In this document: one piece after another, positions 2,713 through 43,642 of the stretch
Numbering within the stretch: position 1 is the first letter of the stretch
Layout: each line of letters starts with the position of its first letter
Assembly (NCBI GenBank): GCA_947627195.1
Contig: CANQVC010000010.1
Coordinates: 1-43,642, forward strand
DNA length: 43,642 nt
Direction: 5' to 3'
Origin: an uncultured Bacilli bacterium
GTDB lineage: Bacteria; Bacillota_I; Bacilli_A; ML615J-28; CAG-698
Program-made: the position numbers and the translations under genes
Notes under the pieces: model-generated
The model's database searches: none
The model's input: the letters and a program-made list of their open reading frames with translations, nothing else
Told to the model about the DNA's origin: nothing

Positions 2713-2749
2713 TTTCTTATTTTCTCCTTTCAAAAAAAACTATAATTAG

Positions 2750-2778: not shown

Positions 2779-2817
2779 TTATTTTTCACTGAAAACGCTT
2801 ATTTTGAATTTTTTTAA

Positions 2818-2850
2818 AAATAAAACAACGATTGAAATGAATCGTTGTTT
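2818..2850 (-). terminator. Rho-independent terminator after the phosphatase gene
   Basis: An 11-bp perfect stem (AAACAACGATT at 2823-2833 against AATCGTTGTTT at 2840-2850) has a 6-base loop. On the minus strand it is followed by a T-rich run. It lies just past the stop codon at 2858 and separates this gene from the lipoprotein promoter. Confidence 0.75.
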
Positions 2851-2857
2851 ATATTAT

Positions 2858-3571
2858 TTATATTAATATTTTAGATTTTTTATTATCATTTATATAGTAA
2901 CATTGACAATTATCAATACAAAAACAGCCAATAACATGACTAATATATGTTCCTAAATCAAGATGAATTTTATAATAATCTTTTATATTATTGCCATTTT
3001 TGTCTTTATATTTATATGTCAATATTTGAGGATGAAGTATATCATTAGATATAAAGAAAGTAGGTGTATGACCAAAAAATATACATTTTGATGTTTGAGG
3101 GATAACATATTCTTCTTTAAATTCACGATCATAAACAAATGATTCTTTTATTATTTGATTAAAAGGAATTAAATGTTGTTCATTATCTAAAGGTATACCA
3201 GCATGAACACATATGAAATCTTCTTCTTCAATAAAAAAAGGTAATGATAATATCCACTTTAAAATATCAATATTAAATAAATTATCTTCATTCATAAATA
3301 ATGAATTTATTTGTAACAAAATATTATTTATTTCAACATTTTTCTCTTTAAGACTTTGATAATATTTTATTAATTCATATTCATGATTCCCAATTATACA
3401 TTTAATGTTTTGTTTTTGATAAATATAATGAAGTAATTTTAAAGATTGATTTCCTTTTTCAATCATATCTCCACAAATATACATTATATCTTGATTACTA
3501 AAATTAATTTTATCTAATAATTTGATGAACAAATCATATTCACCATGAATATCAGATATGACATATTTCAT
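2858..3571 (-). CDS. Calcineurin-like PPP-family metallophosphatase
   Basis: The 237-residue protein has the full PPP metal-site set: DIHG (7-10), GDMIEKG (34-40), GNHE (61-64), CVHAG (His123) and GHTP (His168). This is the layout of bacterial protein Ser/Thr phosphatases and symmetrical Ap4A hydrolases (PrpE/ApaH type). Such enzymes use two metal ions to cleave phosphoesters in the cytoplasm. No signal peptide is present. The start at 3571 has GGAG 6 bases upstream. The next upstream gene, a GNAT, ends at 4583-3594, 22 bases away on the same strand, so the two may be co-transcribed. Substrate (protein phosphate or dinucleoside polyphosphate) cannot be told from the motifs. Confidence 0.85.
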   Translation of the reverse strand: MKYVISDIHGEYDLFIKLLDKINFSNQDIMYICGDMIEKGNQSLKLLHYIYQKQNIKCIIGNHEYELIKYYQSLKEKNVEINNILLQINSLFMNEDNLFNIDILKWILSLPFFIEEEDFICVHAGIPLDNEQHLIPFNQIIKESFVYDREFKEEYVIPQTSKCIFFGHTPTFFISNDILHPQILTYKYKDKNGNNIKDYYKIHLDLGTYISHVIGCFCIDNCQCYYINDNKKSKILI

Positions 3572-3593
3572 ATATTACTCCAAATAATATATA

Positions 3594-4583
3594 TTATTTA
3601 AATGTTTTATTCATACTTACATAAGACATTATAATTTTAAATCCAGCTCCCATGTAAATATATCTTGCATGATTGTTTAAACCTGTATAGAATGTCATAA
3701 ATTTGGCGCCATTCATTTTATTATAGTAAGCTAGATTAGCAAATAATGCTTTACCTAATCCTCTTCCTCTTACTTCTTCTAAAATGGCAATGCCATCAAA
3801 GTGACCTCTTCCACTTTCTTCATTCCACATTGCTCCTGTCCAACCTACTACTTTATTGTCTTTTGCAACAACTAAGAATGGATATGGTTTTTCTAAAGCT
3901 AAGTTTTCTTTAATAACTTTTTCAAAATCATAAATATTTAATTTACGATAAAATTCATCTAAGCCATAATGTTTATTAGGATCATATAATTCTATAGTAA
4001 TATTATCTTTTTTCGCATTTTCTAAAATGTTTTTAATATCACTACTCAATTCGTAATTTTCTAAATCTAAGTGAAAAGCATCACAATAATTATAAGGTTC
4101 ATAACCACGATGTAAATAATAGAAATATTCATTAGAATTGATTCTAATACCAGGAGCACATGGATGATCATGATTTTTAGTATTAGGAATATACCATGGA
4201 TAACATGATGGTAAAAAATAAGCAGCTGCTACTTTTTTTCTTCCTTGTTGTTTAAAATAATTCTCTAAATGAGATAATAACATTGAACCAATTCCTTGTT
4301 TACGATATTCTTTCTTAACCATAATTGTATTAATAATACCTGCAACTTCAGGATTATCAATAAATCTTTTTCTTAAATAACCTATAGCAAAAGCAATAAG
4401 TGTTTGATTATCATATATTACAAATGTACTATCAAATGAAAAATCAGGGTTTGATAAAAGGTAGTTCTCATAATCTGTTGTTGTAAATGGTTTTAAAAAA
4501 TATTCTTCTTTCACAACTTCATTCCAAAGATTACACATGTTTTTTAAATCTTGTTTGTTGGCATTTTTAATACAATAATTCAT
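3594..4583 (-). CDS. Two-domain GNAT N-acetyltransferase
   Basis: The 329-residue protein carries two acetyltransferase folds. The N-terminal one (about 1-180) has the acetyl-CoA motif VKKEYRKQGIGSMLL. The C-terminal one (about 195-329) has LEEVRGRGLGKALF followed by a typical GAGF strand. Both A-motifs (Q/R-x-x-G-x-G/A) look intact, so both halves may bind acetyl-CoA. Tandem GNATs acylate small amines, antibiotics or peptides; the substrate is unknown here. The start at 4583 has GGAGG spaced 6 bases. It lies upstream of the phosphatase gene on the same strand. Confidence 0.85.
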   Translation of the reverse strand: MNYCIKNANKQDLKNMCNLWNEVVKEEYFLKPFTTTDYENYLLSNPDFSFDSTFVIYDNQTLIAFAIGYLRKRFIDNPEVAGIINTIMVKKEYRKQGIGSMLLSHLENYFKQQGRKKVAAAYFLPSCYPWYIPNTKNHDHPCAPGIRINSNEYFYYLHRGYEPYNYCDAFHLDLENYELSSDIKNILENAKKDNITIELYDPNKHYGLDEFYRKLNIYDFEKVIKENLALEKPYPFLVVAKDNKVVGWTGAMWNEESGRGHFDGIAILEEVRGRGLGKALFANLAYYNKMNGAKFMTFYTGLNNHARYIYMGAGFKIIMSYVSMNKTFK

Positions 4584-4617
4584 TTTATCCTCCAGAACAT
4601 TATAATATATTATAAAT

Positions 4618-4643
4618 CATAATTTATAATTTATAATTTATAA
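4618..4643. repeat. Short ATAATTT tandem repeat
   Basis: A 7-base unit (ATAATTT) is repeated about three and a half times between the GNAT start and the ABC-operon terminator. It is simple AT-rich sequence. The rest of 4584-4778 holds only the terminator described next. Confidence 0.5.
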
Positions 4644-4715
4644 CATATTATTATTTTACCAAATTAAAAATCATTAATCAATATAAATAAATATTTTTAA
4701 ATATTTTTTTTTACA

Positions 4716-4758
4716 ATAAAAACCTTAGAAATTATAATTCATTATATATTCTAAGGTT
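4716..4758 (-). terminator. Terminator of the ABC-2 export operon
   Basis: A 10-bp stem (AACCTTAGAA at 4721-4730 against TTCTAAGGTT at 4749-4758) is followed on the minus strand by a run of five T. It lies 20 bases after the last small gene of the export operon. Confidence 0.65.
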
Positions 4759-4778
4759 ATATTCATTACATAAATTAT

Positions 4779-4964
4779 CTAATTAATATTATTACTTTTA
4801 TGATTTTTTCTATTTTTTATTTTAATATTTTTCTGATTATTTTCCGAATGGACTGTGAGTATTTTAATTTTATCTTCAAATGATTGAGCTTTCATAAACT
4901 TATTGAATTCATCATTATTTATTATTTCACTTTTATATCCATTTTTATTTTTTATTTTAATCAC
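4779..4964 (-). CDS. Small Lys/Asn-rich hypothetical protein
   Basis: This is a 61-residue frame with GTG start at 4964. It begins 5 bases after the stop of the ABC permease, with an AAAGG ribosome site that overlaps that stop. The product is basic and hydrophilic (repeated K/N), with no membrane segment and no recognised domain. It lies between the export operon and its terminator, so it would be transcribed with the transporters. The short ribosome-site spacing and biased composition leave real doubt that it is translated. Confidence 0.4.
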   Translation of the reverse strand: MIKIKNKNGYKSEIINNDEFNKFMKAQSFEDKIKILTVHSENNQKNIKIKNRKNHKSNNIN

Positions 4965-4969
4965 TACCT

Positions 4970-5752
4970 TTAAACAATATTTGTTTTATTTAATATAAGT
5001 TTACTAACAAAAGCAAGTCCAATACTAAATAATAAACCACCGGCAAAACACATAATGACATTTAGTATTCCTGCATCAAGTGGTGTCATCATTGGTATCA
5101 TCATAAATAATAACATTCCACAGCCTAAAACACAAATAATAGATAACCATAATTTTGTTTTCGCAACACATGCTAACGTTAAAGCGATAGAAATAAAGAT
5201 AAGTAAAATAAATATTTTTGATATTAAGCAACAAATAAGTGTGCCAACATTAAATCCATCCATATTAAATGGTAAATTACTAATTGAGCCACCTAATAAT
5301 CCACCAATAAAAAATAATAATAACATAATAATACTAGCAATAAAAGAAATAATTATTTTAGATATTACATAATCCATTCTTTTGGTTCTTATTGTGAAGA
5401 TATTTTTCGCATAACCACTTCTAAAATCTTCACTAACAAAGATACAAACAAAGATAGCAACTATAAAATAGATTAGATTAATATTACACATAGATGTTAA
5501 ATCCATTGCCATACCAGTATTTGATGTAGCACCGAATATTTGCCATGCATTCGTAAATGTTTCCATTACTGTTTCTTCTCCTGTTGATGGATCTACAACG
5601 GAGGTGTTCCCCATAAAACTGGTCATTACAAGAACAAGAATTGGCATCATTATACAAATACCAAACATGATATAGACTAAAGGAGTTTTAAACATTCTTC
5701 TACAATCCACTTTTAACATGCTATTAAGATTATTTAAGTTAACTTTATTCAT
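4970..5752 (-). CDS. ABC-2 type export permease, second module
   Basis: The 260-residue membrane protein has about six hydrophobic segments: one near residues 25-45, a pair at 90-145, and three between 170 and 255. A large soluble loop after the first segment contains FTNAWQIFGAT. This layout is that of the bacitracin/lantibiotic-export permeases (BcrB/ABC-2 family). Its ATG overlaps the stop of the ATPase gene as TAATG, so the two are translationally coupled. It is a paralogue of the permease at 6666-7487 and shares the TNAWQI motif after the first segment. Substrate is unknown; self-protection against peptide antibiotics is the usual role of the family. Confidence 0.85.
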   Translation of the reverse strand: MNKVNLNNLNSMLKVDCRRMFKTPLVYIMFGICIMMPILVLVMTSFMGNTSVVDPSTGEETVMETFTNAWQIFGATSNTGMAMDLTSMCNINLIYFIVAIFVCIFVSEDFRSGYAKNIFTIRTKRMDYVISKIIISFIASIIMLLLFFIGGLLGGSISNLPFNMDGFNVGTLICCLISKIFILLIFISIALTLACVAKTKLWLSIICVLGCGMLLFMMIPMMTPLDAGILNVIMCFAGGLLFSIGLAFVSKLILNKTNIV

Positions 5753-6654
5753 TATAAATTATCTCCTTTATCCATAAGATTAATGTAATATTCTTCTAAA
5801 TTAATTTTAGATGTTTGTACATAGATAGGTAAAATATTTTGACTATATAGATAACTTACAACATCTTTCGCCAAACAAGAATCATAAATACGAAGTTCTT
5901 CGTTTTCTTCTATAACTTTATTATATTTATTTTCTAATGTTATTTTAGCTTTTTTGTTGTCTTTTGTTTTTATAGCAACATATGTTGGACATTCTTTTTC
6001 TAATTCTTCTGCGGTCATTTCTTTTATCATTTTTCCATTTCGAATGATTCCATAATGGGTGGCGATTTTTTCAAGTTCTCCTAAAATATGTGATGAAATT
6101 AAAACTGTTGAATTTAAATTCTGAGTAATATCTATTAATACTTCTCGCATGATTCTCATTCCATCAGCATCAAGTCCATTAATAGGTTCATCTAGAATTA
6201 ATAATTTAGGATGTCCTAATAAGGCAAAAGCAATACCAATTCTTTGTTTCATACCTAAGGAACAATTTTTAAATTTGTTTGAAGCAGACCCTTCCATTCT
6301 TACAATTTTTAATACTCTTCTAATTTCTTCATTTTCATTTTTAATACCTAAATTAGCAGCTTGAATTTTCATATTATCCCAAACACTAATATTAGGAAAA
6401 CAGCCTGGACTTTCAATTAAAACACCTATTTGTGATCTAATTTCTTGATTTTGATATTCTTTTCCAAATAATTTAATTGTGCCACTATTTGCTTTAATTA
6501 ATCCACAAATTAATTTTTCAGTTGTGGATTTACCTGAACCATTTTCGCCAATAAAGCCATAAATTGCCCCTATCGGAACCGTCATATTTAAATTTGATAC
6601 AGCTTGTTTTTCTCGATAATTTTTATTTAAATTTCTGATTTCAATTGCATTCAT
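5752..6654 (-). CDS. ABC transporter ATPase, second module (BcrA-like)
   Basis: The 300-residue ATPase has Walker A GENGSGKST (36-44), signature SLGMKQR, and Walker B LLILDEP followed by INGLD. The C-terminal 80 residues form the extension typical of BcrA-like exporters. The signature is the SxGMKQR form seen in antibiotic-export ATPases. It should drive the permease that overlaps its 3' end. It is closely similar to the ATPase at 7487-8386, evidence of module duplication. Ribosome site GGAGATAA precedes ATG at 6654. Confidence 0.9.
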   Translation of the reverse strand: MNAIEIRNLNKNYREKQAVSNLNMTVPIGAIYGFIGENGSGKSTTEKLICGLIKANSGTIKLFGKEYQNQEIRSQIGVLIESPGCFPNISVWDNMKIQAANLGIKNENEEIRRVLKIVRMEGSASNKFKNCSLGMKQRIGIAFALLGHPKLLILDEPINGLDADGMRIMREVLIDITQNLNSTVLISSHILGELEKIATHYGIIRNGKMIKEMTAEELEKECPTYVAIKTKDNKKAKITLENKYNKVIEENEELRIYDSCLAKDVVSYLYSQNILPIYVQTSKINLEEYYINLMDKGDNL

Positions 6655-6665
6655 TTATTATCTCC

Positions 6666-7487
6666 TTAATAACAATCTCTTTTTGATAACACTAAGGTTC
6701 CAACTATATTATAAATAACTGTCCAAACTATACTTACACCTAGACAAGTAATTAAACTAATAATATTTGATGATAAACTAGCATTTACTGATGAACCATA
6801 TAAAAAGATATTTAAAATGGGGGAATTTCCAACGACTGATGATGCAACAATGACAGGAATACCCGTTCCAATAACAAAACATAAAGCAATAGAAATTCCA
6901 AATTTTCTTCTAAAAATAACGTTAATAAAAGTGTATAAACTTGCCCAACCTAGGCTCATAACCATCTTGCCTAAAATGGCTAATATAAGTGAACCAACAT
7001 TTATTGTAAATGGAAGACCTGTAAGAGCACCTGAAAGAGTGCCACCAATAAGATAGGTTATACACATACACATCATTGAAAAGGCACTAATAATGGTCTT
7101 AGACATCATATAATCTTGTTTTTTGGAATGTGTTGTAAATAATTGTTTTACATAACCACTATGGTAATCATGTCCAATAAAGATAGAAACCATAATTCCC
7201 CCAAAAATGAAGACCATATTCATATTGGCATACTCACCAATATTACTTACAACATACAAGGGTTTATCACTAGCTATGATTTGCCAAGCATTAGTAAACA
7301 TTCCTGTTGTTTCACTAGTATCTCCCATAGATCCCATAGAAACTAAAGCTGGAATAATAGCAGCAATAAACAAAAAGATATAAAATAAAGGGGTATGAAA
7401 TAACCGATAAAAATCAACACTTAACATTCCTTTAATTCTTTTTAAAAAAGAGGGCTTGGTAAATTCTATAGTAATATCTTTTTCCAT
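6666..7487 (-). CDS. ABC-2 type export permease, first module
   Basis: The 273-residue permease has a cytoplasmic N-terminus and about six membrane segments. The large loop after the first segment holds MFTNAWQIIASDKP. Its ATG overlaps the stop of the upstream ATPase (TAATG), the same coupling as in the second module. The gap to the next ATPase is 11 bases. The two permeases share layout but are clearly diverged, so they may form a heteromeric channel or two separate exporters. Confidence 0.85.
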   Translation of the reverse strand: MEKDITIEFTKPSFLKRIKGMLSVDFYRLFHTPLFYIFLFIAAIIPALVSMGSMGDTSETTGMFTNAWQIIASDKPLYVVSNIGEYANMNMVFIFGGIMVSIFIGHDYHSGYVKQLFTTHSKKQDYMMSKTIISAFSMMCMCITYLIGGTLSGALTGLPFTINVGSLILAILGKMVMSLGWASLYTFINVIFRRKFGISIALCFVIGTGIPVIVASSVVGNSPILNIFLYGSSVNASLSSNIISLITCLGVSIVWTVIYNIVGTLVLSKRDCY

Positions 7488-8386
7488 TATTTATTTACCT
7501 CCTTACTCATTAATTCAATATAATATTCTTCTAAACCAATTTTATTTTGCATAATCTTACTAACTTCAAAATGATTTGAAAGTAAATTTTTCATCACTTT
7601 TTCTGTATCATCTTCATCATAGATTTTTAAATTATTATCTAACCTAACATCATTAAAATGTTTTTTTAAAATATTATAAGCTTCTTTATTATTATTCGTT
7701 TCAACTTCAATAAAGGTACGATTTCTTGCTTCCATTTCTTTTGCGGAAATTTCTTGAATCATTTTACCTTGCCTAATAATACCATAATGAGTAGCTATTT
7801 TTTCAAGTTCACCTAAGATATGTGATGATATTAAAACTGTGCAATGATAATTTTTAGTTATGTCAACTAATATTTCCCGCATTATTTTCATACCATCAGT
7901 ATCTAAGCCATTAATTGGTTCATCTAAAATAAGTAAAAGAGGTTTACCAAGTAATGCCATGGCAATACCTACTCTTTGTTTCATACCTAAGGAGCATTTT
8001 TTAAATGGTAATTTAATATTATCTTCCATTCTTACTATTTTAAGTACTCGATTAATTTCTTCATCAATATTTTCTATTCCTAAATTTAAAGCTTGCATTT
8101 TTAAATTAGCATAAATACTAGAACTAGGAAAACATCCAGCATTTTCAATTAAAGATCCAATTTCTGATCTAACTCCTGGATCATTGTAATCTTTACCAAA
8201 TAATTTGATTTCACCTTGATTAGGAACTAGGTGCCCACATATTAATTTTTCTGTTGTTGATTTTCCTGAACCATTTTCACCAATAAAACCATAAATAGAT
8301 CCAACTGGTACAGTCATATGAAAATTATCAAGGGCATACAAACCACGAAAACTTTTTGATAAATTTTTAATTTCTATTGCGTTCAT
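7487..8386 (-). CDS. ABC transporter ATPase, first module (BcrA-like)
   Basis: I place the start at ATG 8386 (MNAIEIKNLSK), because the in-frame ATG at 8401 would translate the ribosome site AAAGGAGA itself. The product is 299 residues: Walker A GENGSGKST (36-44), signature CSLGMKQRVGIA, Walker B LLLILDEPINGLD. It is the first gene of the four-gene export operon. It reads away from the TetR-family gene across a 125-base shared control region, which makes TetR control likely. Confidence 0.9.
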   Translation of the reverse strand: MNAIEIKNLSKSFRGLYALDNFHMTVPVGSIYGFIGENGSGKSTTEKLICGHLVPNQGEIKLFGKDYNDPGVRSEIGSLIENAGCFPSSSIYANLKMQALNLGIENIDEEINRVLKIVRMEDNIKLPFKKCSLGMKQRVGIAMALLGKPLLLILDEPINGLDTDGMKIMREILVDITKNYHCTVLISSHILGELEKIATHYGIIRQGKMIQEISAKEMEARNRTFIEVETNNNKEAYNILKKHFNDVRLDNNLKIYDEDDTEKVMKNLLSNHFEVSKIMQNKIGLEEYYIELMSKEVNK

Positions 8387-8409
8387 TTTTTCTCCTTTCA
8401 AAACTACAT

Positions 8410-8452
8410 TTGTTGATTTTACAGTAATATTATAGTATAATTTATCTATAAT
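8410..8452. promoter_or_regulatory. Divergent promoter region with candidate TetR operator
   Basis: On the plus strand TTGATT (8413-8418), 17 bases, TATAAT (8436-8441) serves the TetR gene. On the minus strand TATACT/TATAAT boxes (8440-8429) serve the export operon. An inverted repeat ATTATAG-N10-CTATAAT (8429-8435 and 8446-8452) overlaps both -10 regions. That is where an autoregulating TetR repressor would act. The arms are AT-rich, so chance symmetry is possible. Confidence 0.5.
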
Positions 8453-8511
8453 TTATCCAACAATAAATCATACATATGTTGTTTTCACAAAAAAATTTTA
8501 AAGGAGTAACT

Positions 8512-9108
8512 ATGAATAAATCAGAAGTAAAATATCAAAATACAGCAATTAAAATGGATAAGGCGATGTTAAAGCTATTGGAAGAAAAAGATTTTTTAGA
8601 TATTAGTGTATCAGAAATTTGTAGAGAAGCTGGTGTAAATAGATCTACATTTTATGATCATTATTTGAATACTTATGATTTATTAAAAGAAACGCAAAAA
8701 AAGATTATGAATGATTTTAATAACCATTTTAATGATTTATCAATTGAATTTCCTAATTTCAAAAATGAAAATGAAGAATTGATATTTATATCTCCTAAAT
8801 ATTTAATTCCTTATTTAGAATATATGAAAGAAAATAAAAAGCTTTTTAAAACATATTTGTCTCATCTTTCAACGTTTAACGTGGAAGAAGCTTATGATGA
8901 TTTGTTTCAATATGTATTAAAACCTATTTTCATTCGTATGGGTATTAATGATAATTCAATTATGAATTATATGTCTAAATTTTATTTAACTGGTATAACA
9001 GCAATTGTGAATGAATGGATTAATAATGATTGTCAAGATGATTTATTATTTATTGTGGAGATAATAATTGCTTGTATATATCCTAATACACCATTACAAA
9101 ATAAATAA
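8512..9108 (+). CDS. TetR/AcrR-family transcriptional regulator
   Basis: I place the start at ATG 8512 (MNKSEVKYQ), 6 bases after AAGGAG. An earlier in-frame ATG at 8476 has no ribosome site. The 198-residue product has an N-terminal helix-turn-helix (about 28-58: ISVSEICREAGVNRSTFYDHY) that fits TetR, and a helical C-terminal domain of the type annotated TetR_C_7-like. It is the only regulator beside the divergent ABC exporters and is probably their repressor. A peptide antibiotic or a related ligand would be the expected inducer. Confidence 0.88.
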   Translation: MNKSEVKYQNTAIKMDKAMLKLLEEKDFLDISVSEICREAGVNRSTFYDHYLNTYDLLKETQKKIMNDFNNHFNDLSIEFPNFKNENEELIFISPKYLIPYLEYMKENKKLFKTYLSHLSTFNVEEAYDDLFQYVLKPIFIRMGINDNSIMNYMSKFYLTGITAIVNEWINNDCQDDLLFIVEIIIACIYPNTPLQNK

Positions 9109-9109
9109 T

Positions 9110-9188
9110 AAAAAGGGACTTAAACCTAGTTTATATAGTTCTTATTTAATCATGAGTAAGAAACTTGTATAGGTTTATAGTCCTTTTT
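9110..9188 (+). terminator. Long hairpin terminator after the TetR gene
   Basis: The left arm AAAAAGGGACTTAAACCTA (9110-9128) pairs with the right arm ending TAGTCCTTTTT (9170-9188). A second internal stem AGTTCTTA / TAAGAAACT lies inside. The T run ends the structure. It starts 2 bases after the stop. At about 80 bases it is longer than a simple terminator, so a small RNA or a minute inverted-repeat element is possible. Confidence 0.6.
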
Positions 9189-9225
9189 AAAATTGATTAT
9201 ATTATTTGATAATTTTAAATAAAAA

Positions 9226-9282
9226 GCAAAAAAGAGTTGGCTCTAGTGTAGTCCATAGACCAATATCCACTAGTAAGCCAAC
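9226..9282 (-). terminator. Strong minus-strand hairpin terminator at the island edge
   Basis: On the minus strand GTTGGCT and ACTAGTG (9282-9268) pair with CACTAG and AGCCAAC (9248-9236), followed by TCTTTTTT. It would stop minus-strand transcription before it reaches the TetR gene. Little else is recognisable between 9283 and 9380. Confidence 0.65.
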
Positions 9283-9381
9283 CCAATGAACAATAATGTT
9301 ATATTATATTAATTGTGAAAAGTAATAAAGCATTTGAAAAAATGTTAACATTTTTAATGTCAATATTTTTATCTTATCATA

Positions 9382-9436
9382 TTGGCAAAACAGTATCATT
9401 TTGATATAATGCATGCAAGTGAATGTAAATGCTAAC
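9382..9436 (+). promoter_or_regulatory. Plus-strand promoter with operator shared with the XRE promoter
   Basis: TTGGCA (9382-9387), 17 bases, TATAAT (9405-9410) is a consensus-like promoter. Downstream at 9425-9436 is GTAAATGCTAAC. The same 12-mer lies just after the -10 box of the XRE gene promoter (12670-12659, minus strand). No intact gene follows, so the promoter looks like a leftover from a lost divergent gene of the island. Confidence 0.6.
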
Positions 9437-9910
9437 CTGCTATAAACAAAAACAAACAAAATCATATTAGCTAATGGTGGTTTATCATATCGATATTTTT
9501 ACTTTTATTTTGTTTCCATTTTTAAAGTAAATCTCTATTTTTTGTCTTAATTAATAATGCTTATAATACTAGAAAAATGATTTATATAACTAAAATAGTA
9601 GGTACTAATATTAAAGTTCCTAGATATACTAGAATTAATGGCAAAATATGGTTGGTAATTTTATAAGTGATTTTATTCTTCAAGTATAATCCTTTGTTGA
9701 AAAAACAAAAGAACAATATTAAAGAAAAAATCTAAAGATACTAGAATTATAAAAAATATAAAGATTTAATGCATCTGATCCATTTAACACCAATGAAATA
9801 TTTGATAAGTACATTAATCAAAAAATAAAAAAATTGTATTAATCATTTAAGTATTTAGAGATATATTTTTAAAACTAAGTAGATAAGAAAACAAGAAATA
9901 TTACAATTAA
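9437..9910 (+). other. Gene-poor stretch with possible decayed coding sequence
   Basis: No intact gene is visible. A short plus-strand frame near 9530-9666 reads sensibly (it contains IVGTNIKVPRYTRINGKIW) and is then broken by stops. A further reading near 9779-9840 contains DPFNTNEIFDKYINQKI before a stop. These look like fragments of a lost gene, which I do not recognise. Confidence 0.35.
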
Positions 9911-9951
9911 AAGCTCATTACATATAGAAAATAATCTATTATGCAATGAAC
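9909..9951 (-). terminator. Terminator of the toxin/immunity operon
   Basis: GTTCATTGCATA (9951-9940) pairs imperfectly with the arm ending TGTAATGAGC (to 9913) and is followed by TTTTAATT on the minus strand. It lies 6 bases after the DUF4926 stop. Confidence 0.5.
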
Positions 9952-9956
9952 CTTTT

Positions 9957-10160
9957 TTAATTATCCTTATGTTCTGAATACTTCCAATATACCTCAAGAT
10001 AATCCCCTTTAATTGTGTAAACATCAATCGTTTCATGATTTTCATCAAAAAACTCTACTTCAAAATCATTTTCAGTATATTTTAGTACTATTGTTCCTTT
10101 TGTTCCAACTTTTAAATCTTCAAAAGGTTTTATTAATTTTACGCAATCTAGTTCTTCCAT
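9957..10160 (-). CDS. DUF4926-family small protein, probable immunity partner
   Basis: The 67-residue acidic protein has the DUF4926 pattern: LDCVKLIKP, then KVGTKGTIVLKY, then EVEFFDENHETIDVYTI. This is a small SH3-like beta barrel. In bacterial genomes this family often follows genes for DUF6883 or other secreted-toxin domains, and it is taken to be an antitoxin or immunity factor. Here it directly follows a DUF6883 gene with a 14-base gap. ATG 10160 has AGGAGG upstream. The immunity role is inferred from neighbourhood. Confidence 0.75.
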   Translation of the reverse strand: MEELDCVKLIKPFEDLKVGTKGTIVLKYTENDFEVEFFDENHETIDVYTIKGDYLEVYWKYSEHKDN

Positions 10161-10174
10161 GATGAATATCCTCC

Positions 10175-10645
10175 TTATTTATCTTTTTTGCCTGGAATTA
10201 ATGTAATCAATCTCCAGGATGTTTTGCCATTATCATTCTGAACTACTACAATAACGTTAGCTGAATGAAAATTATTGTCTTTACCTTTAAGTTTAATATC
10301 AAAATTATATTTTGTTCCAAAATTGGTATTTTTAACTTTCGTTGGAATTTTTCCATCTATAGCTCGACCTATAGCATTATGCAATTTTTGCCCATCACCT
10401 GTTTCATAGCCTAAAACATCTTTAAGAAACTTGGCTTTTGAACTCCCATCAACATGATCTGATTTCAATAGATAACCATCATATTTTGGTTCACTTTCCT
10501 TATAGTCAAATTTAGATGAATCAAATGGTTTAAGCTCCTTGCCTATTAATTCTTTTACTTTATTATCAAACTTGCATTGCTCAATGCTACCTTGTGGGGA
10601 TGATCCAACACCAATACCTAGTCCACTTTTATAAATCTTGCCCAT
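10175..10645 (-). CDS. DUF6883-domain protein, probable toxin
   Basis: The 156-residue protein has the DUF6883 core: YLLKSDHVDGSSKAKFLKDVLGY (about 58-80), then a Lys/His-containing helix, then beta strands ending SWRLITLIP. This domain is known as the C-terminal tip of polymorphic toxins. Here it stands alone with a short Gly/Ser-rich head (IGVGSSPQGS) and no visible secretion or trafficking domain. Its ATG lies 17 bases inside the end of the DUF4417 gene, whose coding sequence supplies the GGAGGTG ribosome site. With DUF4926 behind it, it forms a toxin-immunity-like cassette. Activity is unproven. Confidence 0.7.
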   Translation of the reverse strand: MGKIYKSGLGIGVGSSPQGSIEQCKFDNKVKELIGKELKPFDSSKFDYKESEPKYDGYLLKSDHVDGSSKAKFLKDVLGYETGDGQKLHNAIGRAIDGKIPTKVKNTNFGTKYNFDIKLKGKDNNFHSANVIVVVQNDNGKTSWRLITLIPGKKDK

Positions 10646-11375
10646 TTGACTTCACCTCCTTATTAATAATATTTCTTTCTTTAAGTATATTATTGGGGAT
10701 AACAATTTCTATTTCATTATTAGAGGCATATTCAAATAATTCGCGTACTTTATCATCGTTTACTGATACACTGTAAACAATAATTTTCTTTAATTTTTTA
10801 AGATTATCAACTGTATATTCAATTGCTTTTTGAAGCAATTTTCTTTCAGAACGTTTTTTTAATAAACCTTTTATACTGAAAGCAACAACTTCAGTATCTT
10901 CCATTCCATCTAGCATTATATTAAAATAAGTTTCGCTTGCATATGTAATATTAGGTATTACAATAATGTCACACTCAAGCCATAACCATAAAGCTACAAT
11001 TCTCGATTTAAATAATCGATATACATTTTCAATTCTAGGTATATCTCCAACCTCTGAATAATCGGGTGCAATTGCATATTTTACACCCTTAAATCTTTTT
11101 TTATATTTTTCAAGAAGTTTAACATCATTATGATAAATAGCTTCAAATATGCCATTTTTATTGTCAAACTTAACATCATATTGATAAAAGCATACAAATG
11201 TTCTATCTGTTTTATGATAATTAAATGTCTCACTATATAAAGCAAGGTAATCAGGGCTAACTATATTAGAACATTTAATATAAGGCAAGTCATATTTACC
11301 ACAATTATATGTTTTATTAGTTAAATCCACAAAATTTAGATTTAATAATTTATTTAGATCTTTTTTCTTTATCAT
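10629..11375 (-). CDS. DUF4417-domain protein of mobile elements
   Basis: The 248-residue protein matches DUF4417 by eye: APDYSEVGDIPRIENVYRLFKSRIVALWLW (about 103-132), IVIPNITY, and VVAFSIKGLLKK. The family is common in prophages and conjugative elements and has no established function. Its start overlaps the stop of the 63-residue gene as ATGA, and its end overlaps the DUF6883 gene by 17 bases. The whole block from XRE to DUF4926 is therefore one tightly packed operon. Confidence 0.8.
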   Translation of the reverse strand: MIKKKDLNKLLNLNFVDLTNKTYNCGKYDLPYIKCSNIVSPDYLALYSETFNYHKTDRTFVCFYQYDVKFDNKNGIFEAIYHNDVKLLEKYKKRFKGVKYAIAPDYSEVGDIPRIENVYRLFKSRIVALWLWLECDIIVIPNITYASETYFNIMLDGMEDTEVVAFSIKGLLKKRSERKLLQKAIEYTVDNLKKLKKIIVYSVSVNDDKVRELFEYASNNEIEIVIPNNILKERNIINKEVKSNGQDL

Positions 11376-11563
11376 AAACCACCATAAAGAAGGTTTATAT
11401 GCAAATATGCCTTATAACCATCGCCCTTTTTAGCACATAAATCTTGATTTTTTTTATCATGTATGGTAAAATTACAAGTGCTTATGTCGTGATATTCCCA
11501 TATCATGATTCCGCTCATTTGATATTCAAGTGAGCTTTTTTTATTTGTTTTTAATTTCAACAA
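11372..11563 (-). CDS. Hypothetical 63-residue protein, TTG start
   Basis: I do not recognise this protein (it contains MIWEYHDISTCNFTIHDKK and ends HINLLYGGL). It starts with TTG at 11563, 7 bases after AAAGGA, which lies in the last codons of the ImmA gene. It ends in a 4-base ATGA overlap with DUF4417. The position inside a packed operon supports it as a real gene. It has two Cys and one cluster of aromatic residues but no membrane segment. Confidence 0.65.
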   Translation of the reverse strand: MLKLKTNKKSSLEYQMSGIMIWEYHDISTCNFTIHDKKNQDLCAKKGDGYKAYLHINLLYGGL

Positions 11564-11566
11564 TAA

Positions 11567-12253
11567 TCAATCCTTTCTTTTTAAAATGTTTAAATCATAT
11601 AACCTATATAATACTGGATTATAATTTAGTCCAAAATCATCAGCTAAACCTCTTATATGTTTTTTCATATAGCTTGTGTATTCTATTGGATAATTTGGAA
11701 TATTTTTGTATCTTAATCTTTTAAAAAATTCTCTTTTTATCAAATCCCTTGGCATTTGTACTGCTGCGTTTAAATAATTAGTTTGTCTTTCAATAATATC
11801 TTCATCTTTCATTTTATTATTACAATAAGTTCTTTCAAATACGTCTTCTTTACATACCTGAATTAAATCTGTTGTATGAGTCTTAAAATAATTTTTATCC
11901 TTAACCCAATGCATTGCTTCATGTCCTGATACAAATCTTTCCTTTTTTATGTCTTTTTCATCAATGAGAATATTATTAATCACAACTGTTCCTTTTTTAA
12001 ACTTTTCGCAGTGAGGTATATCACCATCTTTACATTTGCCACTATCCCAAATAAACCAGTTTCCATCATCAAAAAATGTCATACCTAATATTTTTTTATT
12101 TGGAGAAATATACTTCCATTCAATTTCTAATCCTTGTTTTTCCATAAAATCATATGCATCAAAGTGACTAACTTTATCTAATCTTTCAGGATAAAATTCT
12201 TTATTAATATTATCGGCTATAGTTTCTAATTTTTCATTTGAATAAAAAAACAC
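11567..12253 (-). CDS. ImmA/IrrE-family metallopeptidase
   Basis: The 228-residue protein carries the zinc-protease motif HEAMH at 111-115, preceded by FVSG. A second cluster downstream (ERQTNYLNAAVQMPRDL) is typical of ImmA/IrrE and holds the third ligand Glu. Such proteases cleave a partner XRE repressor to switch on a mobile element after damage or crowding. The XRE gene is directly upstream with a 10-base gap. Together they match the ImmR/ImmA control pair of elements such as ICEBs1. No signal peptide is present. Confidence 0.88.
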   Translation of the reverse strand: MFFYSNEKLETIADNINKEFYPERLDKVSHFDAYDFMEKQGLEIEWKYISPNKKILGMTFFDDGNWFIWDSGKCKDGDIPHCEKFKKGTVVINNILIDEKDIKKERFVSGHEAMHWVKDKNYFKTHTTDLIQVCKEDVFERTYCNNKMKDEDIIERQTNYLNAAVQMPRDLIKREFFKRLRYKNIPNYPIEYTSYMKKHIRGLADDFGLNYNPVLYRLYDLNILKRKD

Positions 12254-12263
12254 AAAATCTCAC

Positions 12264-12629
12264 CTACTTCTTGTTTGCCATTTCTTCAATAATCTTAATC
12301 CATTCATCATCTCCTAAATTAAGGTCTTTTGCTTTGCGCAATGCTACTCTTACCTTTTGATTATAGCTAACATATTCTTTTAAATCTTGTGCTATTGCAT
12401 CTTTGCTACTAGCCGCTAAATCAAATAATTCATTCGCTTCTTCATTTGATAATTCTAATGCTTTCACCATTCTTTCTAAAATTTCTTGTGTTGGCGCATT
12501 TCTTTTGGATTTTTCAATATCACTCATATATGCAGGAGCAATATTAATCATATCCGCAAAAGATCTTAATGTAATACCTTTTTTTCTTCTCTTTTCCTTG
12601 ACAAATTCTCCGAATGTCATGTTTACCAT
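12264..12629 (-). CDS. XRE-family repressor (ImmR-like)
   Basis: The 121-residue protein has an N-terminal helix-turn-helix (about 8-62: FVKEKRRKKGITLRSFADMINIAPAYMSDIEKSKRNAPTQ in short) of the XRE/Cro type. A helical C-terminal half probably serves for dimer contact or cleavage by ImmA. ATG 12629 has AGGAGG 7 bases upstream. It is the first gene of the island operon and has its own strong promoter. It probably represses that promoter through the repeated TTAGC sites in its leader. Confidence 0.88.
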   Translation of the reverse strand: MVNMTFGEFVKEKRRKKGITLRSFADMINIAPAYMSDIEKSKRNAPTQEILERMVKALELSNEEANELFDLAASSKDAIAQDLKEYVSYNQKVRVALRKAKDLNLGDDEWIKIIEEMANKK

Positions 12630-12650
12630 TTTTATACCTCCTATATTTTT

Positions 12651-12705
12651 GTTAGCTTGTTAGCATTTACGCTTACATTATATCATAACTTAAATAATAT
12701 GTCAA
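12651..12705 (-). promoter_or_regulatory. XRE operon promoter and candidate operator
   Basis: TTGACA (12705-12700), exactly 17 bases, TATAAT (12682-12677) is a perfect consensus promoter. After the -10 comes GTAAGC then GTAAATGCTAAC, and a second GCTAAC 4 bases on. The 12-mer GTAAATGCTAAC recurs after a second promoter at 9425-9436. These are the likely repressor sites. The remaining 12706-12790 shows nothing else. Confidence 0.75.
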
Positions 12706-12790
12706 TATATTTGCCATTTCATTTATATGATATTTTTTAATACATATCTAAAATTCCTATAAAAATTATGCATGTATAAAAGGGTCTCAC

Positions 12791-13223
12791 TTAGCAAGAC
12801 ACTTTATCTATTATTGTTTCATTAATATTAAATGTTTTAAAGATTTTTTCTGTGCACTTAAAATTTCTGTTAACATTGACATGTTTTCAGTAAATTGTAT
12901 TACGAATATTTTTGCATCTCTTTAATTATATCATCAACACTATATTTACTTATATTTACATGTTCAATTATTGTATTGTATATTAATGTTTTAATAATCA
13001 ATGCTATAAATACTATGAACATCTTACCTTTTAATGTTCTTATATTATGCACTTTTAATTTTTTAACATCTAAATCATTTTTTAAATTATCAAATGCTTT
13101 TTCAACAACAGCATTTCTTCGATATTTATATAATACATCTTCAACATTTTTTAGATCATTACTAATAATAACCATATACCATTCATATTTCATTTCTTTT
13201 TCGACGACTTCATCCTTGACTTG
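12791..13223 (-). pseudogene. Remnant of a DDE transposase (IS1634/IS4-like), C-terminal part
   Basis: The fragment from 13223 to 12900 contains YRRNAVVEKAFDNLKNDLDVKKLKVHN and GKMFIVFIALI. This is the conserved C-terminal block of IS1634/IS4-like transposases. An upstream stop (13226-13224) removes the catalytic N-terminal part. After the stop at 12900 the homology resumes in other frames (MLTEI near 12873, then QKKIFKTFNI after a one-base slip) and ends at 12791. It is a dead insertion-sequence relic, and shows that the region has hosted mobile DNA. Confidence 0.75.
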
Positions 13224-13263
13224 TTATGTGATTCCTTTTTTATCTTTTTTATTACAGCTCACG

Positions 13264-13312
13264 CTAAAAAAGACTGACAATTCATACTTGTATGAATTTA
13301 TCAATCTTTTTC
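13264..13312 (-). terminator. Hairpin terminator, copy 1 of a repeated design
   Basis: On the minus strand GATTGATAAATTCATA pairs with TATGAATTGTCAGTC and is followed by TTTTTT. It resembles the hairpin at 14874-14917, with the same outer arms and a different, still paired, middle. It lies about 90 bases after the ATPase gene stop. Confidence 0.6.
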
Positions 13313-13403
13313 TTTTAATATGAAAGAAAAGTGCCATTTTAAACAATGTACGCAAATAAGAATTATGAATTTTCTCTTTAATTTTTAAATAAAGTTTAAT
13401 ATT

Positions 13404-14696
13404 CTAATCACGTAAATAATCTTCTAGTAAAAACTGTTCTACACCTACATAAAATATTCCATTTTCATCATGCCAAGGAATAATATTATCTTTAACAACA
13501 ACAATCTTTTTAAATGAATCATGAATGCGAGAAAATACTTTAGTTTCTTGTTTTCTTTTATCTTCTGTGGGGATAGCGAAAGCAGATTGAATATAGTATC
13601 TATTACTACCTTTATTAGCAATAAAATCAACCTCTAATTGTGTTTTTTTACTTATTCCATTAGAAGATTTATAATTATATTCAACAATTCCGACATCAAC
13701 ACTAAAACCTCTTATTAACAACTCATTATAAATGATATTTTCCATAATATGTGTTTCTTCTTGTTGTCTAAAATTTAATCTAGCATTTCTAAGTCCAATA
13801 TCTGAAAAATAATATTTTAAAGGAGTTTCTATATACTTCTTTCCTTTGATATCATATCTTTGTGCTTTAAAAATCATAAAAGCATCAATAAAATAATCTA
13901 AGTAATTACTTATCGTGGTATTTTTGATATTAATATGTTTTAGAGATAAAAAAGTATTTGACAATTTAGTTGGGTTTGTTAAAGAACCAACAGAGGAAGA
14001 AATTATATTTAATAAATCTTCTAATATTCTTTTATCGTTTTGAAGATTATGCCTTTCTAATATGTCTGATAAATATACTTTTTCAAATAAATTTGTTAAA
14101 TAATTTCTTTTATCTTCATGAGTTTCTAATGACATAATAAAGGGCATTCCACCATAGGTAAAATACTCCTGCCATGCAAGATGCTTATCTTGTTTATAAG
14201 CATCATAAAATTCTTTGTAAGACAGAGGGTTTACTCTTATTTCGTCACCTCTTCCTCTAAATTCTGTTAAAATATCAGAGGACAACATTTTAGAATTACT
14301 ACCTGTAACATAAAGATCAACATTAGTTTTTTTCATTAATCCAAGTAAAACGTCAACAAAGCTTATTTTTTCTTCTTCATCTTCTAAATATGGATTTTTT
14401 ATTGATTTAACTTTTTGAATTTCATCAAGTAAAACATAGTGCATTTTGTCATCTTGAAGTTTGTTTTGAATATATTCATCTAAATGAAGGGGATTTCTAT
14501 ATTTTGCATTTTGATTTTCTTCTAATGATAATGTAATAATATGCTTATCATCTACACCTATCGATTTCAAATAATCATAATAAATATTAAATAATAAATA
14601 GGACTTGCCACATCTTCTTATTCCAGTAATAATTTTGACTAATCCATTTTCTTTTTTTCTTATTAATTTATCAAGATACTGTTTTCTTTCAATCAT
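13404..14696 (-). CDS. AAA ATPase with DUF4143 domain
   Basis: The 430-residue protein has an AAA_14 ATPase at the N-terminus: Walker A GIRRCGKS (25-32), Walker B YVLLDEIQ (Asp91, Glu92) and the sensor strand LYVTGSNSKML. The C-terminal DUF4143 domain (about 225-400) has the nuclease-like pattern QLEVDFIANKG...YYIQSA (Glu, Asp, Gln). This family is widespread in anaerobes and is often near mobile or defence genes. Its function is unknown. ATG 14696 has AAGGAGAG upstream. The gene has its own promoter and is not part of the XRE operon. Confidence 0.88.
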   Translation of the reverse strand: MIERKQYLDKLIRKKENGLVKIITGIRRCGKSYLLFNIYYDYLKSIGVDDKHIITLSLEENQNAKYRNPLHLDEYIQNKLQDDKMHYVLLDEIQKVKSIKNPYLEDEEEKISFVDVLLGLMKKTNVDLYVTGSNSKMLSSDILTEFRGRGDEIRVNPLSYKEFYDAYKQDKHLAWQEYFTYGGMPFIMSLETHEDKRNYLTNLFEKVYLSDILERHNLQNDKRILEDLLNIISSSVGSLTNPTKLSNTFLSLKHINIKNTTISNYLDYFIDAFMIFKAQRYDIKGKKYIETPLKYYFSDIGLRNARLNFRQQEETHIMENIIYNELLIRGFSVDVGIVEYNYKSSNGISKKTQLEVDFIANKGSNRYYIQSAFAIPTEDKRKQETKVFSRIHDSFKKIVVVKDNIIPWHDENGIFYVGVEQFLLEDYLRD

Positions 14697-14712
14697 AAAA
14701 AACTCTCCTTAA

Positions 14713-14781
14713 GGGTTGTTTTTGCGTAAATACGCATTTTTAACCCGTAGTTAGTATAACATTTTAATAAAACTTTGTCAA
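14713..14781 (-). promoter_or_regulatory. ATPase promoter with palindromic leader
   Basis: TTGACA (14781-14776), 17 bases, TATACT (14758-14753). The leader then holds the palindrome TGCGTA-AA-TACGCA in plus-strand reading (14723-14736), nested between GGGTT (14713-14717) and AACCC (14742-14746). It may be an operator at the transcription start or a leader hairpin. The stretch 14782-14873 shows nothing else. Confidence 0.65.
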
Positions 14782-14873
14782 ATAAATCTTTTAGACAAAC
14801 ATTTCAAATAAATTTTTTAGCTATTATTATAATTTTTAAATAATATGTTTGACATAAAAAGTACATCTTATAT

Positions 14874-14917
14874 AAAAAAGACTGACAATGCAAACTTAAT
14901 TGCATTAGTATCAATCT
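14874..14917 (-). terminator. Terminator of tRNA-Leu, copy 2 of the repeated design
   Basis: On the minus strand GATTGA and AATGCA pair with TGCATT and TCAGTC around a short loop, followed by TTTTTT. It begins about 15 bases after the tRNA 3' end. Confidence 0.75.
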
Positions 14918-14931
14918 AGTTCTTTCAATAT

Positions 14932-15015
14932 TGGTGAAGCTAATGAGACTCGAACTCACACGTTAAAAACACTACCGCCTGAAGATAGCGCGTCTACCAA
15001 TTCCGCCATAGCTCC
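14932..15015 (-). tRNA. tRNA-Leu (anticodon CAG)
   Basis: The 84-base gene includes the encoded CCA (14934-14932). Acceptor arms GGAGCTA and TAGCTTC pair with one G-T. The D-arm has GGTAGACGCGC, typical of tRNA-Leu. The anticodon stem CTATC/GGTAG closes a 7-base loop TTCAGGC with anticodon CAG (14981-14979). The variable arm is long (class II), and the T-loop TTCGAGT is present. It sits between the cysK terminator and its own terminator. The accessory island lies directly on its 3' side, the usual place for element integration. Confidence 0.95.
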
Positions 15016-15055
15016 AAATTAAAATTATTTTATCATATTTTATTTTATAATTCAA

Positions 15056-15082
15056 GAAAAAATCCCATTCAATAGAATGGGA
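15056..15082 (-). terminator. Terminator of the asnA-cysK operon
   Basis: TCCCATTC (15063-15070) and GAATGGGA (15075-15082) form an 8-bp stem, followed on the minus strand by TTTTTT. It starts 8 bases after the cysK stop. Confidence 0.85.
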
Positions 15083-15089
15083 CTTATCG

Positions 15090-16016
15090 TTATTCAAAAG
15101 CTTTTGTTGATAAATATCTTTCACCTGTATCAGGAAGTAAAACAACAATTGTTTTACCTTCATTTTCTTTTCTTTTAGCAACATTTGTTGCTGCATATAA
15201 AGCAGCACCTGAAGATATTCCAACTAAAATACCATCTAATCTTCCTAATTTTCTTTCAGCTTCAAAAGCTTCTTCTTCTTTTACAGTAATAATTTCATCA
15301 TATATTGATTGATTAAGAGTTTTAGGAATAAATCCTGCGCCAATTCCTTGAATGCCATGAGGTCCTGATACACCTTTAGATAGAACTGGTGAATTAAATG
15401 GTTCAACAGCAATTATTTTTATATCTTTGTTTTTTTCTTTTAAATATTTACCTACACCACTAATTGTACCACCTGTACCAACTCCAGCAACAAATATATC
15501 AACATTACCATCAGTATCATTCCATATTTCTGGTCCAGTTGTTTTATAATGAGCTTCAGGATTACATAAATTTTCAAATTGACTTGGGATAAAACTATTA
15601 GGAATTTGTTTATGAAGTTCATTAGCTTTTTCAATAGCTCCCTTCATTCCTTTACTTCCTTCAGTTAATACAATTTCTGCTCCATATGCTTTTATTAACA
15701 ATCTTCTTTCAATACTCATTGTTTCAGGCATTGTTAATATCAATTTATATCCTCTTGATGCTGCTATAGAAGCTAAACCAATTCCTGTATTACCACTTGT
15801 TGGTTCAATTAAAACAGATCCTTGTTTTAATATTCCTTTTTCTTCAGCATCTAAAATCATTTCTTTCGCAATTCGATCTTTAGTACTACCAGCAGGATTA
15901 AAGCTTTCAACTTTCACATATAATTTAGCTTTTATTCCTTTTTCTTTAATATAACCAATTGGTTCAATTAAAGGGGTATTACCAATTAGTTCTATAATAC
16001 TTTTATATACTTTCAT
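15090..16016 (-). CDS. cysK: Cysteine synthase A (O-acetylserine sulfhydrylase)
   Basis: The 308-residue protein is a fold-type II PLP enzyme that makes L-cysteine from O-acetylserine and sulfide. The PLP lysine is Lys46 in FNPAGSTKDR. The substrate loop TSGNTG is at 73-78. The glycine-rich phosphate loop GTGGTISG and the C-terminal VGISSGAA are present. Length is normal for CysK. It follows asnA by 7 bases, so the two are co-transcribed. The ribosome site is weak (AGGT), which fits coupling to asnA. CysK can also act as CdiA-type partner or regulator in some species, but nothing here shows that. Confidence 0.93.
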   Translation of the reverse strand: MKVYKSIIELIGNTPLIEPIGYIKEKGIKAKLYVKVESFNPAGSTKDRIAKEMILDAEEKGILKQGSVLIEPTSGNTGIGLASIAASRGYKLILTMPETMSIERRLLIKAYGAEIVLTEGSKGMKGAIEKANELHKQIPNSFIPSQFENLCNPEAHYKTTGPEIWNDTDGNVDIFVAGVGTGGTISGVGKYLKEKNKDIKIIAVEPFNSPVLSKGVSGPHGIQGIGAGFIPKTLNQSIYDEIITVKEEEAFEAERKLGRLDGILVGISSGAALYAATNVAKRKENEGKTIVVLLPDTGERYLSTKAFE

Positions 16017-41013: not shown

Positions 41014-43642
41014 AATAAAATTCCTATAAAGGTAATATTGTTATAAGAATGGTTACACAAAAATTTGGCTTTGGGGAATTGTGTTTCAATTCCTGTAAAG
41101 GTAATATTGTTATCTGGGGATGGTTTTAAAATGTCAGACCAAAATTGTTTCAATTCCTGTAAAGGTAATATTGTTATACCATCTCAATTTTATTTATCAT
41201 TGCATACTTTGGGTTTCAATTCCTGTAAAGGTAATATTGTTATTTGAAGAAGAATTACATATGAAATTTTATAGATATAGTTTCAATTCCTGTAAAGGTA
41301 ATATTGTTATACAAAGTTATCACCTAATTTTAAGGTTAAAGAATTCCAGTTTCAATTCCTGTAAAGGTAATATTGTTATCAAACTTGGAATATAAACCGA
41401 TAGGTTTAAATTTGGTTTCAATTCCTGTAAAGGTAATATTGTTATTATAAACATGAAAGCAATTGAAATTTTAAACAAAAAGTTTCAATTCCTGTAAAGG
41501 TAATATTGTTATAAAGAAGAATTTAAAGCTATTGAAGACTATTTGAGTTTCAATTCCTGTAAAGGTAATATTGTTATAAAAAAAGCATCTATAAAATATC
41601 AAAAAAAATTAATGTTTCAATTCCTGTAAAGGTAATATTGTTATTTCAAAGATCACCAAGAAGTGTTGTAAATGGGATTTGTTTCAATTCCTGTAAAGGT
41701 AATATTGTTATTCCAACGGCTGCAGTTATCTGCTGTTTAAAAGCAGTTTCAATTCCTGTAAAGGTAATATTGTTATTAATGCATTTTGACCGAGAAGACA
41801 GGCAATATATCGTTTCAATTCCTGTAAAGGTAATATTGTTATTAGTGCTGCGAAAGGTAAAAAATAAGTATGATAGAAGTTTCAATTCCTGTAAAGGTAA
41901 TATTGTTATAGGTATACAAATATGAAAACAATTGAAATTTTAAAGTTTCAATTCCTGTAAAGGTAATATTGTTATAAAGAAAAAATGAAAAAATTAAAAA
42001 TCAATTTAGGGTTTCAATTCCTGTAAAGGTAATATTGTTATTTTAATAACAACGTCATCTAGCATTTTATCTAAAAGTTTCAATTCCTGTAAAGGTAATA
42101 TTGTTATTATAACAAATATATTGAACGTGACAAACAAATTCAAGTTTCAATTCCTGTAAAGGTAATATTGTTATTTTAGTAAATTTTACGGAAGATAAAT
42201 TACTTTATAGCGTTTCAATTCCTGTAAAGGTAATATTGTTATTTTTAAAAAGAGAAGAAAAAAATGAATAATAAAGAAGTTTCAATTCCTGTAAAGGTAA
42301 TATTGTTATTGCTCGTGTTCCGTTAAATAGTTTGTTTTTAACTAAGTTTCAATTCCTGTAAAGGTAATATTGTTATTACATTTTAAATCACTAATAACAT
42401 ACTCGAAAAAGTTTCAATTCCTGTAAAGGTAATATTGTTATTGAAGATTACTTGTTAAAATGGTCAAATCAAAACGGTTTCAATTCCTGTAAAGGTAATA
42501 TTGTTATGCGATAGTGTCCCAGTAGCATTTGAAGATGAAAAAGGTTTCAATTCCTGTAAAGGTAATATTGTTATTAACCACTAGGAGAAAAAATTATGAG
42601 TTCATATAGTGTTTCAATTCCTGTAAAGGTAATATTGTTATAAATATACGGAAAACAATAACATATACGAATATTTGTTTCAATTCCTGTAAAGGTAATA
42701 TTGTTATATGTATATATCCGATTCATACTAATCCAGATTATCCGTTTCAATTCCTGTAAAGGTAATATTGTTATAAATGAAAGGAAATAAAAAAATGAAA
42801 ACTTTAAAAATGTTTCAATTCCTGTAAAGGTAATATTGTTATAAAATATATTTAAACCTATAAAACTTGAATTATTAGAGTTTCAATTCCTGTAAAGGTA
42901 ATATTGTTATTTAGAAGCCAAAACAAAACGATTTTGACAAAGGTAAAGTTTCAATTCCTGTAAAGGTAATATTGTTATAAATCCATCACAGAGAAACAAA
43001 GTTTCACGATGAAGTTTCAATTCCTGTAAAGGTAATATTGTTATAATAAGCATGAAAATAAAAATTAGTTTAATCGGAAGGTTTCAATTCCTGTAAAGGT
43101 AATATTGTTATTCTTTACCCAAAATCTCAATATCACACCTGATATTGTTTCAATTCCTGTAAAGGTAATATTGTTATAAAAATGAATAATAAAGAAATTG
43201 ATTCACAAAAAAGTTTCAATTCCTGTAAAGGTAATATTGTTATAAAAAATGAGGCAATTTGAATTGGTAGGGTACAAAGGAGTTTCAATTCCTGTAAAGG
43301 TAATATTGTTATTTAATCATAATGAATTTTTAACGGATAAAGAATTAGTTTCAATTCCTGTAAAGGTAATATTGTTATTTTGAAAAAGAAGAGGATGCAA
43401 GGGAATATTTTAAAGTTTCAATTCCTGTAAAGGTAATATTGTTATGCATAAGCTGACCCAATTTCAGCGACAAGTTCTTCGTTTCAATTCCTGTAAAGGT
43501 AATATTGTTATTTAAAACTTCTTGGCAAAACATCGATAACAAACCAGTTTCAATTCCTGTAAAGGTAATATTGTTATCAAACCGTACACATTTCCGTTTC
43601 AATTTGATGGCGTTTCAATTCCTGTAAAGGTAATATTGTTAT
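41014..43642 (-). CRISPR. CRISPR array, 40 repeats and 39 spacers, open at the right edge
   Basis: The repeat is 31 bp. On the plus strand it starts GTTTCAATTCC and ends TATTGTTAT. I count 39 identical copies (first 41083-41113, last 43612-43642) plus one degenerate copy at 41014-41044 with about five changes in its first 13 bases. Spacers are 33-38 bp, mostly 35-36. On the minus strand the repeat ends ATTGAAAC, the typical crRNA 5' tag of type I and III systems. With the degenerate repeat at the left, transcription is probably leftward from a leader beyond the window. No cas gene is in the window. The small frames seen here are artefacts of the repeat. Confidence 0.97.

What the first reader, a model, noticed from the sequence alone, without database searches (positions are those of the whole stretch)
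41045..43611. Spacers show strong coding-strand bias: crRNAs would be antisense to mRNA
I read each spacer in three frames on both strands. About 32 of 39 look like sense protein on the plus strand, for example 43379-43414 FEKEEDAREYFK, 42108-42143 YNKYIERDKQIQ, 41777-41811 MHFDREDRQYI, 42508-42543 DSVPVAFEDEK, 41513-41546 KEEFKAIEDYL, 43313-43347 NHNEFLTDKEL, 42175-42211 LVNFTEDKLLYS. Four look like sense on the minus strand (42042, 43446, 42377, 41712) and three are unclear. Because the array is probably transcribed on the minus strand, most crRNAs would pair with mRNA. DNA-targeting type I arrays normally show no such bias. The pattern fits a type III interference complex or spacer capture from RNA by an RT-Cas1.
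Basis: partly seen in the sequence, partly recalled or inferred. Interest (0 to 1): 0.8.

Follow-up and report, generated by a model that had tools for sequence, protein, structure and literature searches.

The report
Type III-A CRISPR array targeting mRNA
This is the memory bank of an ordinary RNA-sensing (type III-A) bacterial immune system, and about three quarters of its entries are stored in the direction that lets the guide RNA pair with the invader's messenger RNA, as such systems are already known to do.

Summary
The array (41014-43642, 39 spacers) is real. A codon-usage strand test spacers plus-strand sense with host codons and 32/39 with AT-rich phage codons (estimated sense fraction 0.76-0.83). 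In this array alone much of the signal is purine/A richness (p=0.155 beyond dinucleotide composition). Pooling it with type III arrays from nine related genomes settles the matter: 181/249 spacers give antisense crRNA (p=5e-13), against 47/91 in two arrays with type I-C repeats.
The array continues on another contig beside a leader and a complete type III-A operon. The RT-Cas1 reading is not: Cas1 is stand-alone and no reverse transcriptase was found in this 98%-complete genome.
The likely mechanism is the known one: RT-free capture of spacers from DNA, then selection for crRNAs that pair with phage mRNA. A published survey gives about 65% coding-strand spacers for type III (PMC8482600). No protospacer was found, so all strand calls are statistical. 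Newest spacers are as biased as old ones. An apparent start-codon enrichment did not replicate.

The parts
41014..43642 (-). CRISPR array, 40 repeats and 39 spacers; crRNA strand is minus; the contig ends inside the array
41014..41044 (-). Degenerate terminal repeat (5 mismatches), trailer (oldest) end
41045..43611 (+). 39 spacers, 33-38 nt; 27 (host codons) or 32 (phage codons) read as sense coding on the plus strand, so crRNA would be antisense to mRNA
43446..43480 (-). Clearest exception: spacer that reads as coding on the minus strand (LLR -7.1), so its crRNA would be sense
43612..43642 (-). Last repeat of the contig. Contig G000:C27 begins with the same repeat (2-32), then a leader-like stretch (33-194) and, all on the minus strand of C27: cas2 195-461, cas1 463-1452, cas6 1449-2180, Cas6-like gene 2158-2853, csm5 2853-3965, csm4 3975-4898, csm3 4902-5492, csm2 5489-5959, cas10 5952-8243, csm6 8245-9570 (outside the window)

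Best explanation
The array is the memory of a complete, RT-free type III-A (Csm) CRISPR-Cas system of an uncultured low-GC bacterium. Stand-alone Cas1-Cas2 insert pieces of invader DNA next to the leader. Cas6 cuts the minus-strand transcript, leaving an 8-nt ATTGAAAC tag. The Csm complex with Cas10 is triggered only when the crRNA pairs with invader RNA; Cas10 then cuts DNA (HD domain) and makes the signal that activates Csm6 (GGDD motif). Only cells whose new spacer yields an antisense crRNA are protected, so antisense spacers accumulate at about 3:1 to 4:1. Shown here by sequence: architecture, absence of an RT, likely orientation, and the statistical bias. Inferred from studied type III-A systems: capture from DNA, crRNA cutting, interference, and selection as the cause of the bias.
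For: Complete III-A operon beside the array with intact Cas10 HD and GGDD and a Csm6 R-x4-H motif. No RT in the genome, one Cas1, one Cas10. Window array 27-32 of 39 antisense crRNA; pooled type III 181/249, p=5e-13; without the window 154/210, p=9e-12; I-C-repeat arrays 47/91. Signal remains after composition control in the pool. Published type III average 65% coding strand (PMC8482600) and counter-selection as the cause in an RT-free Thermus system (PMC9048733).
Against: No protospacer was found in any collection, so strands are inferred from codon statistics. In the window alone the bias is not significant beyond dinucleotide composition (p=0.155). The three newest spacers of each array are already as biased (30/41) as older ones, so selection, if the cause, must act at once.
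Confidence: 0.85

Rival explanations
1. Spacers are copied from RNA by an RT-Cas1 fusion or a separate reverse transcriptase.
For: Would give enrichment for transcribed regions, and the newest spacers would be biased at once, as seen.
Against: Cas1 is 329 aa without an RT domain; no RT family match in the 98%-complete genome. The review states that RT-active type III systems show no strand bias at most genes (PMC9048733).
Confidence: 0.03
2. RT-free Cas1-Cas2 capture is itself biased towards one strand of transcribed or purine-rich DNA, so orientation is set at acquisition rather than by selection.
For: No age gradient (30/41 in the three newest spacers against 106/152 in older ones). Target strands of type III spacers are as purine-rich as complete phage coding strands, more than a 75-80% sense mixture would suggest.
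Against: The review describes counter-selection as the cause of the bias in an RT-free Thermus system, and no direct correlation of acquisition with transcription in Streptococcus thermophilus (PMC9048733). Fast selection within one infection also gives no age gradient.
Confidence: 0.1
3. The signal is only purine or A richness of the spacer strand and has nothing to do with coding.
For: Window alone: not significant beyond dinucleotide composition (p=0.155).
Against: Pooled type III arrays stay strongly significant after dinucleotide shuffling (394 against 177 +- 30), and I-C-repeat arrays show neither bias.
Confidence: 0.04

Closest known systems
RT-free type III-A (Csm) CRISPR-Cas systems (Staphylococcus epidermidis, Streptococcus thermophilus)
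   Same: Cas10, Csm2-6, Cas6 and stand-alone Cas1-Cas2; most crRNAs antisense to mRNA
   Different: Csm6 is at the upstream end of the operon and an additional Cas6-like cysteine-rich gene lies between csm5 and cas6; sequence divergent
Coding-strand bias of type III spacers in a large survey (Vink et al. 2021, PMC8482600)
   Same: Same direction and similar size: 65% there, 69-82% called here
   Different: The survey used mapped protospacers; here none could be mapped and the strand was inferred from codon usage
RT-free type III adaptation in Thermus thermophilus (Artamonova 2020, as described in PMC9048733)
   Same: No RT, and a strand bias explained by counter-selection
   Different: Observed experimentally there; only inferred here
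RT-Cas1 type III systems (Marinomonas, Fusicatenibacter)
   Same: Type III interference on RNA
   Different: No reverse transcriptase here

Membership tests
Type III-A CRISPR-Cas system | Cas10/Csm1 with Csm2-Csm5 | tested here: met
   Cas10 3e-111, Csm2 5e-17, Csm3 9e-60, Csm4 2e-25, Csm5 2e-10; Csm5 falls just below the NCBIfam cut-off, 37.6 against 38.3 bits
Type III-A CRISPR-Cas system | Active-site motifs of Cas10 (HD, GGDD) and a CARF-HEPN Csm6 | tested here: met
   HDIG, GGDD and RNDSAH motifs; Csm6 family match
Type III-A CRISPR-Cas system | Array adjacent to the operon, crRNA tag from the repeat end | tested here: met
   C27 begins with the same repeat, then leader and cas2; the join of the two contigs is inferred
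Type III-A CRISPR-Cas system | RNA-triggered interference with cyclic oligoadenylate signalling | not testable with these tools
   Needs biochemistry
RT-Cas1 type III system | Reverse transcriptase fused to or beside Cas1 | tested here: not met
   No RVT_1 match in the genome; Cas1 of 329 aa
Type I system | Cas3 with Cascade genes | tested here: not met
   No cas3_core match over the cut-off; the only Cas1 lies in the csm operon
Type III arrays with coding-strand bias | Excess of spacers whose crRNA pairs with mRNA | tested here: met
   By codon statistics, not by protospacers

The most novel reading that the evidence does not exclude
The antisense and purine-rich preference is imposed at spacer capture by an RT-free Cas1-Cas2, without reverse transcription and before selection, as the lack of an age gradient would allow.
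Probability: 0.1. Interest if true: 0.6.

Novelty: new member of a known kind. Interest (0 to 1): 0.22.

Why it matters
Spacer orientation could be read from codon statistics although no target phage is known, and it correctly pointed to an RNA-targeting system on a contig that carries no cas gene. The absence of an age gradient across the pooled type III arrays is a small constraint on how the bias arises. The bias itself is established knowledge.

Tried and rejected
Protospacer searches: all 39 spacers against phages, plasmids and genomes of the family; 80 spacers from four related type III loci and most of 130 spacers from five further loci against phages; eight IMG/VR pattern scans. No true protospacer. 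The one IMG/VR hit set (ATGAAARCAATTGAAATTTTAAA) matches starts of other viral genes at 27-29 of 35-36 nt and is not a protospacer.

Start-codon enrichment: 7/39 window spacers looked like ribosome-binding site plus ATG against about 1.5 expected (p about 0.001). The idea came after seeing the data; a simpler test gave 5 against 2.7 (p=0.12), pooled type III arrays gave 16 against 17, and G026 gave 4/64. Rejected as a general property.

Age gradient of the bias: none; it does not separate rapid selection from biased capture.

Naming the genome by its exact repeat: no match.

Full report
What was checked. The window's right end holds 39 exact copies of GTTTCAATTCCTGTAAAGGTAATATTGTTAT and one degenerate copy at 41014-41044, with 39 spacers of 33-38 nt. 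The window is contig C10 of a 1.84-Mb, 98%-complete genome in 78 contigs, and the contig ends inside the array. Contig C27 begins with the same repeat and is taken to be the continuation; more spacers may lie in the gap. After a leader-like stretch (33-194) it carries, all on its minus strand, cas2, cas1, cas6, a Cas6-like extra gene, csm5, csm4, csm3, csm2, cas10 and csm6. This is a complete type III-A system. Catalytic motifs are present: HD and GGDD in Cas10, R-x4-H in Csm6. The genome has one Cas1, one Cas10, no Cas3 over the cut-off and no reverse transcriptase.

Orientation. The degenerate repeat is at the low-coordinate end (trailer), the leader and cas operon lie beyond the high-coordinate end, and the reverse complement of the repeat ends in ATTGAAAC, the usual form of the crRNA tag in related repeats (established knowledge).

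Strand statistics. Stop-free frames are uninformative on 35-nt AT-rich pieces (55 against 61). A codon-usage likelihood ratio trained on 307 host genes classifies 35-nt gene fragments with 88% accuracy and spacers plus-sense (p=0.024). Trained on two AT-rich Staphylococcus phages it. The maximum-likelihood sense fraction is 0.76 (0.57-0.91) or 0.83 (0.67-0.94). Purines exceed one half in 31 spacers and fall below in 8. Part of this is composition: after dinucleotide shuffling the window alone is not significant (p=0.155).

Comparison. Type III loci of nine further genomes of the same class were found and their arrays read. PADLOC models confirm Cas10 of III-A in G079, G333 and G203 and a III-B complex in G054; the others rest on Cas10 matches. 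Antisense crRNA: G001 8/11, G003 1/2, G009 3/3, G026 43/64, G333 23/27, G079 37/54, G327 8/10, G054 13/16, G203 18/23; with the window 181/249, p=5e-13. A three-spacer array of G058 was left out because its repeat unit was not resolved. Two arrays with I-C repeats gave 47/91: G006, with Cas3c and Cas8c, 34/65; and G106, which has both Cas3c and a Cmr (III-B) complex beside the array, 13/26. G106 is thus a mixed control. After dinucleotide shuffling the pooled type III signal is 394 against 177 +- 30, while the I-C arrays show none. Orientation of the compared arrays was set from repeat ends; the degenerate terminal repeat agrees in most arrays, is uninformative in G001, G003 and G009, and points the other way by one mismatch in one array of G054.

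How it arises. The known explanation is that type III complexes are triggered by RNA, so only antisense spacers protect (PMC8482600; PMC9048733). The RT-Cas1 alternative fails here. The bias is the same in the three newest spacers of each array (30/41) as in older ones (45/56 and 106/152). This fits selection during the infection in which the spacer was gained, or biased capture, and cannot separate them. The target strands are as purine-rich as complete phage coding strands, which is more than a 75-80% sense fraction alone would suggest; without known phages this stays open.

Limits. The query held most but not all of the 130 spacers of that set. IMG/VR was scanned with single patterns for only a few spacers.

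Verdict. A correct and well-reasoned observation, of a phenomenon already described for type III systems, in a new uncultured host.

Noticed in passing
L009 (G000:C27) 2158-2853 minus strand; also L033:6826-7527, L077:5493-6191, L081:13814-14533: Extra conserved protein of about 230 aa between csm5 and cas6 in type III-A operons of this class: weak Cas6 match (2e-6), four invariant cysteines (C-x6-C-x2-C-x5-C), glycine-rich C-terminal end, no Pfam family. Possibly a second, cysteine-cluster Cas6-like RAMP.
   Followed up: partly
L009 (G000:C27) 9840-15461 plus strand: Three-gene cluster beside csm6: SNF2-type helicase (1111 aa), AAA ATPase (372 aa) and DUF2201 metallopeptidase/VWA protein (394 aa). 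Weak similarity of the helicase to DISARM and BREX helicases; a candidate defence cluster.
   Followed up: partly
L033 (G026) array 456-4697: Three spacers come from related copies of one site (reads GPDTLEYP) and two overlap at another (YWKNGTWAG), each set in one orientation: repeated sampling of the same target.
   Followed up: partly
L078 (G106) 3623-5348: Array with I-C repeats beside both Cas3c and a Cmr (III-B) complex, yet no strand bias (13/26): a possible exception worth a look.
   Followed up: no
Pooled type III spacers, target strand ends: The last base of the target strand (next to the crRNA tag) is A in 51% and the third base from its other end is a purine in 71%. Unexplained; could be a capture preference.
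   Followed up: no
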